A stretch of DNA of 64,000 nucleotides, from assembly GCA_022385755.1 (NCBI GenBank), contig MU278350.1:1444486-1508485 (forward strand), in the 5' to 3' direction. Of this stretch, positions 26,228 through 55,451 are shown piece after piece; the stretch's first letter is position 1; every line of letters begins with the position of its first letter. This DNA is from Trametopsis cervina (taxonomy: Eukaryota; Basidiomycota; Agaricomycetes; Polyporales; Irpicaceae). Both the position numbers and the translations under genes were made by a program. The notes beneath the pieces were generated by a model. It had not been told where the DNA came from, ran no database searches, and saw only the letters and a list, made by a program, of their open reading frames with translations.

Positions 26228-27963
26228 ATGATTTTCTCGCTAGCATTCGCCGCGTCTTTGATCGCGTCTGTCTCTGCCCATGCCACATTCCAGGCAATGT
26301 GGGTGAACGGCGTCGACCAGGGTATGTCTTTATAACTGCGTTTTTGGGAAATGTCAACTCAGCCGTACTCGCTCGATAGGAAGCTACTGTGTTCGTCTTC
26401 CCCAGTCTAACTCTCCCGTGACGAGTGTCACCACCAACGTAGGTTGCCTCTGTGTTAGTCAATAAAAGTACATGGACTCATGAGATTAAATGCAGGACAT
26501 TGCTTGCAATGCCAACGCCCACGCCGCATCTGGGCTTTGCTCTGTCAACCGTACGTCCATCATAATATGATTGTGGGACCCTTTACTCATACTTGAAAAA
26601 TAGCCGGCGACTCCGTCACCGTTGAGATGCACCAGCAGCCTGGTGACCGCTCGTGCGCCAACCAGGCTATCGGTGTAAGTTAAGCTTGCAGCCGGAGCTC
26701 GGTAGTCATGCTCATGCGTCATACAGGGAGATCACTTCGGTCCCATCAATATCTACCTCGCCAAGGTTCCTGATGCTACCAGCGCTGTCGGCTACCAGCA
26801 AAGCTGGTTCAAGATCAACGAGATGGGTCTTCCGTCCAGCAACCCCGACTACTGGGCCACTGGTGCGTCTTTCTCATGCAGTGCACGTGAGGGACAGTTT
26901 CTGATACGTCCTATGCAGAGGTCTTGAACGACAACTGCGGTCACTACACCTTCACCATCCCTTCGGGAATTGCTCCTGGTAACTACCTCCTCCGTGCTGA
27001 AGTCATTGGTACGTGCAGCAGTCACTTTTCAAAAATCATTAGCAAAGGCTGAACTGTACACCTTTAGCTCTCCACGTCGCCAGCAGCCCCGGTGGTGCAC
27101 AGTACGCATTATCCGTTACCGCTGCAAGATCTTTTCTTCTGACAAAACCTGTCTCCCTGCAGATTCTACATGTCCTGCTTCCAGCTCAGCGTCGGCGGAT
27201 CTGGCTCTGTTTCCCCGGCTGGCGTCAAGTTCCCGGGTGCTTACAGCGCGTCCGACCCCGTACGTCTGCACACAGGCGTGAAATAATCAATCGACTGACT
27301 TTCTTTTGCTTTTAGGGCATCCTGATCAACATCTACACCCAGCTCAACTCCTACCCCAGTGAGTACTTCACCATTTATCATGCATAAAGCATTATCTGAC
27401 AACGCTTTTACAGTCCCCGGACCTTCTCCCTACAACGCTCCCTCCCCCGCCGTTGCCACCACCGCATGGCCAACAACCGCGACCTGGAACACCAAGAGCC
27501 AGCCTGCTACCGTTCCGACGACCCCGCCGCCAGGTGCCGGTGCGCCCCCGCCGGTAAGCTCAGATAGATCTTGTGCAATTTCTACAGCATAACTGACTAG
27601 CTCCCCACAGACCAGTGCTCCTGCCGTATGTTTCAGTATCTTTCGGCGAAACAGAAACATGTGTACTAATCCCGTTCTTCTTATAGAGCCCGACGTCTGT
27701 CCCAACCTCCGTGCACACATCTTCCCCCACCTCTGTGCACTCATCCGCTCCCACCTCCGCCCCCACCTCCGCTCCCCCATCGACGCCTTCCGCGGGCACC
27801 GTTGCTCAGTACGGTCAGTGCGGTGGCCAAGGCTGGACTGGCGCTACTGCTTGTGTCTCACCTTACACTTGCAAGGTTCTCAACCGTAAGTCTCCTACTT
27901 CTACTTCTGAATGTTTCCCACAACTCACTCCGCTTCGTAGCATACTACTCGCAATGCACGTGA
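26228..27963 (+). CDS. AA9 lytic polysaccharide monooxygenase with CBM1
   Basis: Secreted copper enzyme that oxidatively cleaves cellulose or related glucans. The signal peptide ends at SVSA, so the mature N terminus is His ([11 protein letters not shown]), the first copper ligand. The second His is in [14 protein letters not shown], and the axial aromatic lies in [12 protein letters not shown]. The catalytic domain is followed by a Pro/Thr/Ser linker (about 27540-27800). A complete C-terminal CBM1 follows ([17 protein letters not shown]... ending NPYYSQCT), with four cysteines and the flat-face aromatics. The last intron (donor CC|GTAAGT, acceptor CGTAG) separates the final residues. Many short introns of 50-60 bases. 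The CBM1 implies binding to crystalline cellulose. Confidence 0.94.
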
Positions 27964-51846: not shown

Positions 51847-53185
51847 ATGAAGTCCTTCCTCGCTCTTCTCGCCGCTGTGGCTGCTCCCCTTATCTCCGCA
51901 CACTGTGAGTAGCGATTCGTCCAAAGGAGAGCCTGTACTGATTTTCCGCATGAACTCGCAGACACATTCCCCGACTTTGTCAATGGCGGTGAGCTATGTT
52001 TAGTTTTGAAGCATCCGAACCCGAACTGAACCGTAAATACTCAGGCTCCGTATCAGCTGTAAGCGTGCCCATGCTGCGTTCGTAGTTGGGCCTCCTAAAA
52101 ATACTCTGTAGGACTGGCAATACATCCGTGTAACAGCCAACCATTACTCCAACGGGCCGGTAAGTCAGCATATGGTCTTGTACTGCCTCGACCAAGTCAT
52201 TTACGTCTTTGTTTGAAGGTGACTAATGTGAACGACCCCGAGTTCCGCTGCTACGAATTGGACTTGCAAAACAGCGCCGGTGCAACTTCCACTGCTTCCG
52301 TCTCTGCTGGTAGCACCATAGGATTCAAAGGTAGGCATCTTGACGCGCCGCCTTATCCGATTTCTGACCTCTTTGACCTTCGACAGCCGTCAGTATTATC
52401 TCTGACCTATCGTATGTTATGCACTGACAATAGTTCCGTGTAGAACCAAGCACTCTACCACCCTGGCGTAAGTTCTCAGTAAGAAGTGTGAGAAAGCATC
52501 AATTGACCCATTGTATCGCAGTACTTCGCTGTCTACCTTTCTAAAGCCAGCCCGGCTGCAAACTCTCCCCAGGCCGGAACTGGCCAATCCTGGTTCAAGG
52601 TCTATGAAATACCGCCAGTCCTCCAAAACGGGGCATTGACCTTCCCATCTGAGAGTGAGTCGACCAGGATGAACTCCCTAGATCCGTTTCTGATCTTTCC
52701 TATTAGACCAGCAGCAGTTCACATTCACTCTTCCCAAGAGCCTTCCGAGCGGCCAATACCTCGCCCGCGTCGAGCACGTACGTATTCAATCGTAGTTTCC
52801 CCACGCCCATACAATCCTTAAAACCTCCGCAGATCGCTTTGCACTCCGCGAGCACCTACGGTGGTGCACAGTTCTATATCAGCTGCGCCCAACTCAACGT
52901 CGTCAACGGCGGAAGCGGCACGCCCGGTCCTCTCGTTTCGATTCCTGGTGTTTACACTGGTGTACGTCTGTCATCATTTTTGGCTCCACAGCCCATGCGT
53001 GTTTCAACCCTAACATATTCCGATGTTCTCGCAGTACGAGCCCGGTATCCTCATCAACATCTACAGCCTCCCGAAGAACTTCACAAGCTACCCGTCGCGT
53101 GAGTGCTTGATTCACATGCTGCTTTTCGACTCTTGCTTATCGATGCGCCCGCTCCGTAGCCGGTCCTGCTGTCTGGCACGGATAG
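51847..53185 (+). CDS. AA9 LPMO, no CBM (tandem copy 1)
   Basis: Secreted copper monooxygenase. The signal peptide MKSFLALLAAVAAPLISA is followed by mature HYTFPDFVNGG, with His1 as copper ligand. The second His is in ALYHPGYFAVYLSKASPAAN, and the axial Tyr region is GGAQFYISCAQLNVV. It ends YPSPGPAVWHG with no CBM. The exon pattern is extreme. A 14-base exon (52045-52058) encodes the end of GGSVSA. The in-frame join FKA-NQALYHPG requires a 2-base exon CC at 52387-52388 between two introns of 56 and 55 bases. Further introns follow PSE(N), EH and YTG and precede the last 9 residues. Exon plan and phases are the same as in the neighbour at 54174, so the pair is a recent tandem duplication. Confidence 0.92.
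52387..52388 (+). other. Inferred 2-base microexon of AA9 copy 1
   Basis: CC flanked by an acceptor CGACAG and donor GTCAGT. It is required to keep frame between ...TTCAAAG and AACCAAGCA..., giving an Ala codon G-CC. The same feature is at 54662-54663 in the paralogue. Confidence 0.7.
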
Positions 53186-54173
53186 AGAAAATACTTTTCA
53201 CATTGTATGATAACGTAGCTATCGAATACACGACTTACGAGACAATGAATCACCTTGATGATATCCGTGTCATGAGCATAGAGTCCAGTTCGAGTTGCGA
53301 ATGGCATGAATCAGTGACGTGCTTGGACGCGCAACAGACAACGAAGTAACGGACGATAAGCGAAGCATCGTGCAACCCGGAGAAACCTCCTCTAGTGGCT
53401 ATACGTCGGGACAGATGGCACCGCATGATATCTTCCGAGTGTTGTACGCGATGCGAATTGCGTGGTGACGCACTTCGATGTCCATTGATATTCTACCAAT
53501 GCACCGCCACGGAATGGCGATGAAAATCTATTGCGCGGACAAATGGTCGCCCGGCATGGGTGAATGACACAATAAAATATATTGAGACCGTATGTTCTCC
53601 AACATGACCGTGATGAGCACGCGGTTAGCACATTGTCAATAATCAAAATGAAGCCACCTGGGTGGAGTCGGATTCATTGACGTGTGACATGCACAGAAAA
53701 GCAGCGGATCTTCTTGTTTTACCGTGAAAGACGTTTGTTTCGTTCCGATGCACAGCACCGCCGGCGGGGTAAGCACAACGGGCACCCTCGGTGAGGCGAA
53801 TATCGGCTCATGCTCGGTTGAAGAGTGGTTCTCGCTTCTCCGACCCATGCTAGAGATTGATTGGCTTCGTACTGGCGTGCTTTGCGGGGTAAGGTCCGCT
53901 AAATTGTCTCACAAAGGTAGCGGTTCCAAAATTACATCCACCAGTCAGGTTCGTGTTGCGAGTGCTGATGTTGAGGTTGTCGTCTTCGCGCGCTGGTCAC
54001 GCAATGCTAGCTCGGAAGATCTCGCTGGGCGCGGTGCGGCAATCCTCCCAAGCAACCACGAATTGATTACGTAGGGTCTGCGGCATCTTGAGGGTTATAA
54101 AAGCAACCAGCAAGACACTCTGAATTCCTCACCTCTGGTCTACACAGCTGTTCTCCACAAGCGAACTCGGAAA
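53186..54173. other. Intergenic between tandem AA9 genes
   Basis: No gene supported; an open frame at 53724-54074 lacks an ATG and motifs. It holds the promoter of AA9 copy 2 at the right end. Confidence 0.5.
54096..54103 (+). promoter_or_regulatory. TATA box of AA9 gene 2 of pair
   Basis: TATAAAAG about 75 bases before the ATG at 54174, at nearly the same place as in copy 1. Confidence 0.65.
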
Positions 54174-55451
54174 ATGAAGGCCTTCTTCGCTGTCCTTGCT
54201 GTTGTCTCCGCGCCCTTCGTGGCTGCTCACTGTAATGAGTTTCATCTTCATCTCCCGCTTCATGCTGTGTTGACCATACATCCTCTTCTAGACACCTTCC
54301 CGGATTTCATCACCGGCAGTATGTTGATTAGAGCCGCCTGAAAATTGAAATGACTAACCTATGCTCGCTCGCTTCCTAGGCACCGTCGCCGCTGTAAGTC
54401 TGCTTCGTACTTTCTTAGTTATAAGTCCAGTACTCACTCGACGCTCAGGACTGGCAATACATCCGTGAGACTGCCAACCACTACTCCAACGGTCCAGTCA
54501 CCAGCGTCACCGATCCCGAGTTCCGTTGCTACGAGCTCGACCTCCAAAACACTGCAGGCCAGACTAGCACTGCTACCGTCTCGGCTGGCTCAACCGTCGG
54601 ATTCAAAGGTACGTTTCCATAGTGAATCCTGATCTGATAGCTCCTGACGAATATTTTACAGCCGTAAGCAGCGCTTTACAAAGTCATGTAACGTCATATA
54701 CTAACCTTCATTTGCTAGAACGGTGCCATCTACCACCCAGGGGTGAGTAAATTCGATGGTATGACATATGAGAAAATGCGCTGACTAATTTCTTGTTTTA
54801 TAGTACCTCAGCGTTTACCTGTCCAAGGCCAGCCCCGCCGCCAACTCTCCTCAGGCGGGTACAGGACAGACCTGGTTCAAGGTCTACGAGCAGAAGCCCA
54901 CCTATGCTAACGGCCAGCTGACCTTCCCGTCAACCAGTTAGTCCGATTCTATTGTATCAATTCAAATAGCGATCTCACGCACCACTTGACATTTAGGCCA
55001 GCAGCAGTTCACCTTCACCCTCCCCAAGAGCTTGCCCAGCGGCCAATACCTCGCCCGTGTTGAGCAGGTACGTCAACTGAGGCGCAATATCAGCCGCTTG
55101 CTCACCTAAAACCGCCTCTAGATTGCTCTCCACGTTGCATCCACCTACGGTGGTGCCCAGTTCTACATTGGCTGCGCTCAAGTCAATGTTGTGAACGGAG
55201 GTAGCGGCAACCCCGGCCCCCTCGTTTCTATTCCCGGAGTGTACACTGGCGTAAGTGGAGCCTTACGTTGTTAGGATGTATGCTGATGAACTTCGTCGAA
55301 ATTCAGTACGAGCCCGGTATCCTCATCAACATCTACAACCTGCCCGCCAACTTCACCGGCTACCAGGCCCGTGAGTGTCTTTCTTAGCTCATAAAAAGTA
55401 ATGATACTTACCTTGAATACTATAGCCGGTCCGGCCGTCTGGCAGGGATGA
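54174..55451 (+). CDS. AA9 LPMO, no CBM (tandem copy 2)
   Basis: Secreted copper monooxygenase closely related to copy 1. Signal peptide MKAFFAVLAVVSAPFVAA, then mature HYTFPDFITGG. His2 is in AIYHPGYLSVYLSKASPAAN; GGAQFYIGCAQVNVV follows, and it ends YQAPGPAVWQG. Exons at the 5' end: 54174-54231, 54292-54318, a 14-base exon 54380-54393, 54449-54608, the 2-base exon 54662-54663, and 54719-54742. The introns around the 2-base exon are 53 and 55 bases long, with CTGAC and CTAAC branch-site matches. No linker or CBM, so it relies on the catalytic domain for substrate binding. Cysteines FRCYEL and YIGC are kept. Confidence 0.93.
54662..54663 (+). other. Inferred 2-base microexon of AA9 copy 2
   Basis: CC between acceptor TTTTACAG and donor GTAAGC. 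It completes the Ala codon in FKA-NGAIYHPG; a single intron across the region would break the frame. Confidence 0.75.

What the first reader, a model, noticed from the sequence alone, without database searches (positions are those of the whole stretch)
52331..52443. 2-base exon conserved in two tandem AA9 genes
In AA9 copy 1 the frame between TTCAAAG and AACCAAGCACTC can only be kept by an exon of two bases (CC, 52387-52388) between introns 52331-52386 (56 nt) and 52389-52443 (55 nt). The paralogue has the identical arrangement (54609-54661, 53 nt; CC at 54662-54663; 54664-54718, 55 nt). Both introns of copy 2 carry their own branch-site-like CTGAC or CTAAC before the AG. The joined protein, FKA-N-(Q/G)A-(L/I)YHPG, includes the copper-binding His. 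A single intron of 110-113 bases would shift frame and lose that His. Exons this small are rarely annotated and gene finders would miss them, so LPMO models in related species may be wrong here. It could also reflect recursive splicing.
Basis: partly seen in the sequence, partly recalled or inferred. Interest (0 to 1): 0.8.

Follow-up and report, generated by a model that had tools for sequence, protein, structure and literature searches.

The report
Two-base exon in fungal LPMO genes
Two neighbouring wood-decay enzyme genes of the white-rot fungus Trametopsis cervina each seem to contain an exon only two bases long, probably shared with related fungi; it is a striking new example of a kind of ultra-small exon already known in plants and fungi.

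Summary
Both tandem AA9 genes (51847-53185; 54174-55451) need the exon CC (52387-52388; 54662-54663) between two ordinary introns to keep the family-conserved FKANxA-(L/I)YHPG. A spliced aligner given only the Phanerochaete chrysosporium PcGH61D protein placed CC in copy 2 unprompted. The copy 2 protein equals a public Trametopsis cervina model over 235 aa, and the public copy 1 model is right at this spot, so this annotation did not miss it. 'Only CC keeps frame' is too strong for copy 1, where a weak 120-nt single intron is also in frame. PcGH61D, cDNA-verified in 2011, has a 708-bp CDS and 10 introns, as copy 2 has, so the exon is probably shared. In relatives the site is an annotation trap: 13 of 72 non-GHPG models show read-through signatures of one of the two introns; the nearest paralogue outside the pair has neither intron. 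Strict recursive splicing is not supported; sequential removal of two introns is most likely. One-nucleotide exons are published for Arabidopsis and Fusarium: a new member of a known kind. No RNA was available here.

The parts
51847..53185 (+). AA9 copy 1 (12 exons, 11 introns, 235 aa)
   Evidence: public model P0015 agrees up to the last intron
52219..52330 (+). exon before the microexon, copy 1 (ends TTCAAAG)
52331..52386 (+). intron before CC, copy 1, 56 nt, weak donor GTAGGC, CTGAC branch motif, phase 1
52387..52388 (+). 2-nt exon CC, copy 1 (completes the Ala codon GCC)
52389..52443 (+). intron after CC, copy 1, 55 nt, GTCAGT...CTGAC...GTAG, phase 0
52444..52467 (+). 24-nt exon NQALYHPG with the copper-ligand His, copy 1
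54174..55451 (+). AA9 copy 2 (11 exons, 10 introns, 235 aa), identical to public model P0001
54609..54661 (+). intron before CC, copy 2, 53 nt, phase 1
54662..54663 (+). 2-nt exon CC, copy 2
54664..54718 (+). intron after CC, copy 2, 55 nt, phase 0
54719..54742 (+). 24-nt exon NGAIYHPG with the copper-ligand His, copy 2

Best explanation
Each gene has a constitutive 2-nucleotide coding exon, CC, that completes the conserved Ala codon (AAA G^CC^AAC). It is flanked by two ordinary short GT-AG introns, each with its own branch motif. The introns are recognised one at a time by intron definition and removed in sequence, because a 2-nt exon cannot hold two spliceosomes at once (inferred). Skipping CC or keeping either intron breaks the frame and ends the protein early, so accurate inclusion is needed for a working LPMO. 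The arrangement is in both tandem copies, most simply because it predates their duplication, and is probably shared with Phanerochaete chrysosporium and other Polyporales. It most simply arose when two introns were gained 2 nt apart in a gene that, like the nearest paralogue outside the pair, read through this codon without a break (loss of both in the other lineage is not excluded). Shown here: sequence, frame, sites, conservation of the protein and agreement with public models. Inferred: splicing itself, its order, age, and sharing of exact intron positions.
For: Frame and residues. Template-independent recovery of CC in copy 2 with the P. chrysosporium 4B5Q protein. 100% identity over 235 aa of copy 2 to a public T. 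cervina model, and ANQA in the public copy 1 model. Chance controls. All 4 flanking introns have CTRAC against 5 of 25 reference introns, Fisher p 0.005. Exon sizes are the same in both copies apart from one extra intron in copy 1, while the corresponding flanking introns are not clearly more alike than shuffles (28 and 311 of 500 shuffles reach the score), so the arrangement looks old. PcGH61D: cDNA cloned and sequenced, gene model with 10 introns confirmed, 708 bp (passages of PMC3223205), matching copy 2 in both numbers; its solved protein reads FKANSAIYHPG. Relatives: 7 models have Val straight after the Ala, as read-through of a GTN donor after GCC would give (6 by pattern, P0047 by eye), against 0 of 96 unaffected rows that the pattern could read (of 112); 6 have Gly for Ala with an insertion, as read-through of AAAG^GT would give.
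Against: No RNA from T. cervina could be searched. No genomic DNA of any other species was available, so that both introns sit in one gene elsewhere is inferred from protein models and an intron count. Weak sites: donor GTAGGC and acceptor CGACAG of the first intron of copy 1 rank 1/25 and 0/25 against the reference introns, and the acceptor of the second intron of copy 2 ranks 1/25. Copy 1 offers an in-frame 120-nt alternative. Gly for Ala also occurs in 6 of 96 unaffected rows, so Gly alone is not a clean signature. Indels near the C-terminal junction (19 of 66) are as common as at CC (16 of 66), so the site is not the only weak place in these models.
Confidence: 0.92

Rival explanations
1. 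Copy 1 is spliced with one 120-nt intron (52331-52450, acceptor CCAAG), giving FKA-LYHPG without Asn-Gln-Ala's first two residues; no microexon is needed there.
For: In frame, keeps the copper-ligand His.
Against: 120 nt against 51-73 nt for 25 reference introns; acceptor ranks 1/25; removes an Asn invariant in the nine-sequence alignment; not used by the public model; no counterpart in copy 2.
Confidence: 0.03
2. Recursive splicing or a spliceosomal twin intron: the stretch is one complex intron removed in two steps with no true exon left behind.
For: Two introns with separate branch motifs lie almost back to back; sequential removal is likely.
Against: Leaving no bases shifts the frame and gives stops at residues 102 and 130; CC separates AG from GT; the public proteins contain the Ala.
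Confidence: 0.02
3. The exon is real but also a switch (an addition to the best explanation, not a replacement): a share of transcripts skips CC or keeps an intron, giving unproductive mRNA that tunes LPMO output.
For: Skipping and either retention give early stops in both copies: residues 102, 153, 100 in copy 1 and 130, 91, 149 in copy 2. A regulated 20-nt microexon exists in Trichoderma Xlr2 (PMC11121469, passages).
Against: No expression data; early stops after mis-splicing are common for any intron.
Confidence: 0.1
4. Copy 2 uses a different 2-nt exon, CA (54669-54670), with a GC donor for the second intron, giving the same protein.
For: Listed by the enumeration; same protein.
Against: Acceptor CGTAAG and donor GCGCTT look poor (not scored); the public protein cannot tell GCC from GCA; no such reading in copy 1.
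Confidence: 0.02

Closest known systems
1-nt exon of CYP621A genes in Fusarium (PMC12940212; abstract, Introduction and Discussion seen)
   Same: Ultra-small exon in a conserved enzyme motif of a fungus, needed to join out-of-phase exons, conserved across species
   Different: 1 nt, Ascomycota, P450, backed by RNA reads; the authors propose rescue of a lost base by a cryptic exon, whereas here a paralogue has the same Ala codon unbroken
1-nt exons of APC11 and VPS55 in plants (PMC4674806 and PMC8831610; passages seen)
   Same: Constitutive exon below 3 nt, missed in annotation; removal of the two introns one after another proposed
   Different: Plants; 1 nt; RNA-verified
Exons of 3 nt in lipS of Dactylellina haptotyla (PMC5639578, passage) and of 6 bp in P. 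chrysosporium P450s (PMC1184071, passages)
   Same: Tiny exons in intron-rich fungal genes
   Different: Longer, and whole multiples of 3
Near intron pairs (PMC2891723, passages)
   Same: Two intron positions a few nt apart in one gene family
   Different: Such pairs are held very unlikely to have coexisted within a single gene; here both are present together
PcGH61D gene of P. chrysosporium (PMC3223205, passages)
   Same: 708-bp CDS, 10 introns, FKANSAIYHPG
   Different: Exon sizes not remarked on in the passages seen ('exon' occurs 0 times in the main text); intron positions not seen here

Membership tests
AA9 lytic polysaccharide monooxygenase | Pfam PF03443 above its cut-off | tested here: met
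   174.3 and 179 bits against a cut-off of 27.8
AA9 lytic polysaccharide monooxygenase | His at the mature N-terminus and second copper-ligand His (roles recalled) | tested here: met
   His19 and His93 invariant in alignment A1 of nine sequences; His19 aligns with residue 1 of 4B5Q; leader cleavage itself not tested
AA9 lytic polysaccharide monooxygenase | Metal-dependent oxidative cleavage of polysaccharide | not testable with these tools
   Reported for PcGH61D (PMC3223205, title and passages)
Ultra-small constitutive microexon | Exon below 3 nt flanked by two canonical introns, needed for frame | tested here: met
Ultra-small constitutive microexon | Inclusion seen in RNA | not testable with these tools
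   No T. cervina RNA at hand; indirect support from the PcGH61D cDNA
Ultra-small constitutive microexon | Conservation across species | tested here: inconclusive
   Read-through signatures in 13 of 72 models and the PcGH61D intron count, but no other species' genomic DNA
Recursive splice site (zero-nt exon) | AG directly followed by GT, donor re-formed by the first splice (definition recalled) | tested here: not met
   AG-CC-GT in both copies
Spliceosomal twin intron (stwintron) | One intron interrupts a splice element of another and the whole stretch is removed (abstracts) | tested here: not met
   Whole removal (113, 110 nt) breaks the frame

The most novel reading that the evidence does not exclude
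An obligatory 2-nt exon has been kept in one LPMO lineage across Polyporales, with both introns of a near intron pair coexisting for that time, and its skipping is used as an off-switch for enzyme output.
Probability: 0.08. Interest if true: 0.75.

Novelty: new member of a known kind. Interest (0 to 1): 0.42.

Why it matters
Exons below 3 nt are rare and test how spliceosomes handle two introns with almost nothing between them. This one sits beside a copper ligand of an industrially relevant enzyme, occurs in two tandem genes with diverged introns (a natural replicate), and seems to spoil public models in relatives: three of the models with an error here (P0024, P0031, P0037) lack the HPG motif altogether. 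It also gives a case in which both introns of a near pair coexist.

Tried and rejected
Search for relatives' DNA: genome contigs and viral contigs gave no AA9 relative (29 and 31 pattern matches, none confirmed). These collections are of prokaryotes and viruses, and no metagenome scan was allowed, so this says nothing about fungi. Internal duplication of one intron into two: no similarity above shuffles (c1i5 against c1i6, 359 of 500 shuffles reach the score; c2i4 against c2i5, 146 of 500).

Limits of the misannotation count: 21 of 72 with an indel near the site is an upper figure. It includes P0130 (GHPG type, cut after MG), P0118 (a longer deletion), and P0020, P0039, P0121, P0123, P0124, whose cause is unclear; P0037 is a clean skip without the Val/Gly sign; 13 carry the sign. 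P0122, also without HPG, has no indel at the site. Gly for Ala occurs in 6 of 96 unaffected rows, Val after Ala in 0 of 96. Indels at the other eight junctions in the same 66 models were 9, 7, 6, 3, 7, 1, 1 and 19. The tree holds 69 of the 133 proteins and 17 rows that I labelled by eye; the label is only weakly clustered (12 changes, shuffled mean 15.2, 18 of 500 shuffles as low). The aligner's results for L041-L051 are too distant or ragged for a sure homologous site.

Papers opened that gave nothing on fungal exon size: PMC3990503, PMC8022950, PMC4014442 (mapping settings only), PMC12514121.

Full report
What is there. The window lies in contig C3 (1444486-1508485) of a 29.4-Mb genome. The copy 2 protein is 100% identical over 235 aa to BDW22DRAFT_1462603 of Trametopsis cervina, on a contig of the same length as C3, 1624618 bases, so the organism is taken to be that white-rot fungus. 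Two tandem AA9 genes were rebuilt: copy 1, 51847-53185, exons of 58, 27, 14, 48, 112, 2, 24, 133, 71, 129, 64 and 26 nt; copy 2, 54174-55451, exons of 58, 27, 14, 160, 2, 24, 133, 71, 129, 64 and 26 nt. Both CDS are 708 nt; the proteins agree in 192 of 236 columns, the stop counted as one. Both score far above the Pfam AA9 cut-off.

Is the 2-nt exon needed? I listed the in-frame, stop-free readings with up to two introns (GT or GC donor, AG acceptor, 35 nt or more) between fixed flanking codons: 23 per copy. Restricting by hand to GT donors and introns of 45 nt or more leaves 7 in copy 1 and 2 in copy 2. In each copy one of these alone keeps the family length and conserved residues: AAAG^CC^AAC. 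With GC donors allowed, copy 2 has a second 2-nt reading, CA, with the same protein. A spliced protein-to-DNA aligner of my own, with donor and acceptor scores from 17 other introns of the two genes, chose the CC exon in copy 2 with only the P. chrysosporium protein as template, and in copy 1 with the copy 2 protein as template.

Is it more than chance? CC with usable introns arose in 108 and 124 of 20000 shuffles; any 2-nt exon in 991 and 1039; any 2-nt exon with branch motifs on both sides in 16 and 9. In the window, both strands, exon lengths 0 to 12, only these two places fit one expression that I wrote after seeing them. All four introns have CTRAC against 5 of 25 reference introns (17 from these genes, 8 from L039), Fisher p 0.005. 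Site strength is mixed: the first intron of copy 1 has a weak donor and acceptor (ranks 1/25 and 0/25), the last acceptor of the pair in copy 2 is weak (1/25), and the other five sites rank 10/25 to 19/25.

Agreement with public data. The public T. cervina models read FKANGA (P0001) and FKANQA (P0015). I cannot see their exon coordinates, nor whether RNA was used. PcGH61D of P. chrysosporium is 82% identical over 92% of the copy 2 query (P0022). Its cDNA was cloned and sequenced, confirming a gene model with 10 introns and 708 bp (PMC3223205, passages). Copy 2 has exactly 10 introns and 708 nt. The model span given there, 1254 bases, leaves 546 nt for 10 introns if it covers the coding part only. 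This makes a shared, cDNA-verified microexon likely, not proven.

Relatives. Two searches listed 133 distinct proteins (the best 120 of 540 and of 895). I split them by hand into 30 from jgi/lgn contigs under 3.4 kb and 103 others. An indel within 6 residues of the CC junction occurs in 21 of 72 others without GHPG (16 of 66 plus 5 of 6; they include records without a contig such as 4B5Q), in 0 of 31 others with GHPG, and in 0 of 30 short-contig proteins (0 of 20 and 0 of 10), which I take to be mostly cDNA because their frames are unbroken (inference). Fisher p is 0.0003 against the 31 and 0.005 against the 20. In 7 the Ala is followed by Val (P0003 Cytidiella melzeri, P0016 listed as Pleurotus ostreatoroseus, P0024 Irpex rosettiformis, P0027 Panus rudis, P0028 Meripilus lineatus, P0031 Hermanssonia centrifuga, P0047 Phanerochaete sordida), as expected if GCC runs into a GTN donor. 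In 6 it is replaced by Gly (P0014, P0017, P0030, P0041, P0045, P0106), as expected if AAAG runs into GT. P0017 of Irpex lacteus inserts 22 residues, the last a Thr before the Ala, fitting a retained 66-nt intron ending ACAG before CC (back-translation by hand). P0037 of P. carnosa jumps from GF to YL, losing the copper-ligand His. These are annotation errors in my reading; their DNA was not seen.

Origin. The nearest paralogue outside the pair, L039 (public P0049, GHPG type), reads GGC TTC CGA GCT GAT AAC without a break and has neither intron, though it shares the intron after HPG. L040 has neither by the aligner. On the tree (69 of the 133 proteins, midpoint root) copy 1 groups with P0013 of C. 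melzeri, P0017 of I. lacteus and P0024 of I. rosettiformis (98/87), and copy 2 lies outside that group. I. lacteus and C. melzeri each have a second protein nearer to copy 2 (P0002 93%, P0003 88%) whose contig has the same listed length as that of the first. So the duplication looks older than these genera and the exon, found in both copies, older still unless gene conversion spread it. Because the codon is whole in L039, CC is most simply old coding sequence cut out by two intron gains, rather than a cryptic exon recruited to mend a frame as proposed for Fusarium CYP621A (PMC12940212, abstract, Introduction and Discussion). Loss of both introns in the other lineage is not excluded.

Mechanism. 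Intron definition with one intron removed after the other is the model proposed for the Arabidopsis 1-nt exon (PMC4674806, passages); competition between the two flanking introns is proposed for plant microexons (PMC8831610, passage). It fits here: each intron has its own donor, branch motif and acceptor. Order is not decidable from sequence. Skipping CC, keeping the first or keeping the second intron stops translation at residues 102, 153 and 100 (copy 1) and 130, 91 and 149 (copy 2), so inclusion must be efficient if the enzyme is made.

Novelty. Exons of 1 nt are published for Arabidopsis and Fusarium; 2-5 bp exons are mentioned for Arabidopsis, Drosophila and humans (PMC12940212, Introduction), 3-nt exons for Dactylellina (PMC5639578, passage), and 6-bp exons for P. 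chrysosporium P450s (PMC1184071, passages). Phrase searches for 2-nt exons gave two papers, on rare-disease genotypes and primate HLA-F by title and not opened. Searches pairing microexon with LPMO terms (20 of 189 papers listed) or with basidiomycete (6 of 6 listed) showed no such exon by title and abstract. The library lacks most subscription papers. So: a new member of a known kind, with real annotation value.

Noticed in passing
window 53099-53468: The public T. cervina model of copy 1 (P0015, 270 aa) appears to skip the last 26-nt exon (53160-53185, PGPAVWHG-stop) and instead uses an acceptor ending at 53337, giving a family-foreign tail.
   Followed up: partly
window 26622-27262 (within L051): Another AA9-type gene with a YHFGP motif lies in the same window, distant from the tandem pair.
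   Followed up: partly
window 52045-52058 and 54380-54393: Both copies also have a 14-nt exon, and a 24-nt exon right after the microexon; small exons are a general trait of these two genes.
   Followed up: partly
window 52160-52218: Copy 1 has one intron (after NGP) that copy 2 lacks, while the paralogue L039 has one at the same place, which suggests loss in copy 2.
   Followed up: no
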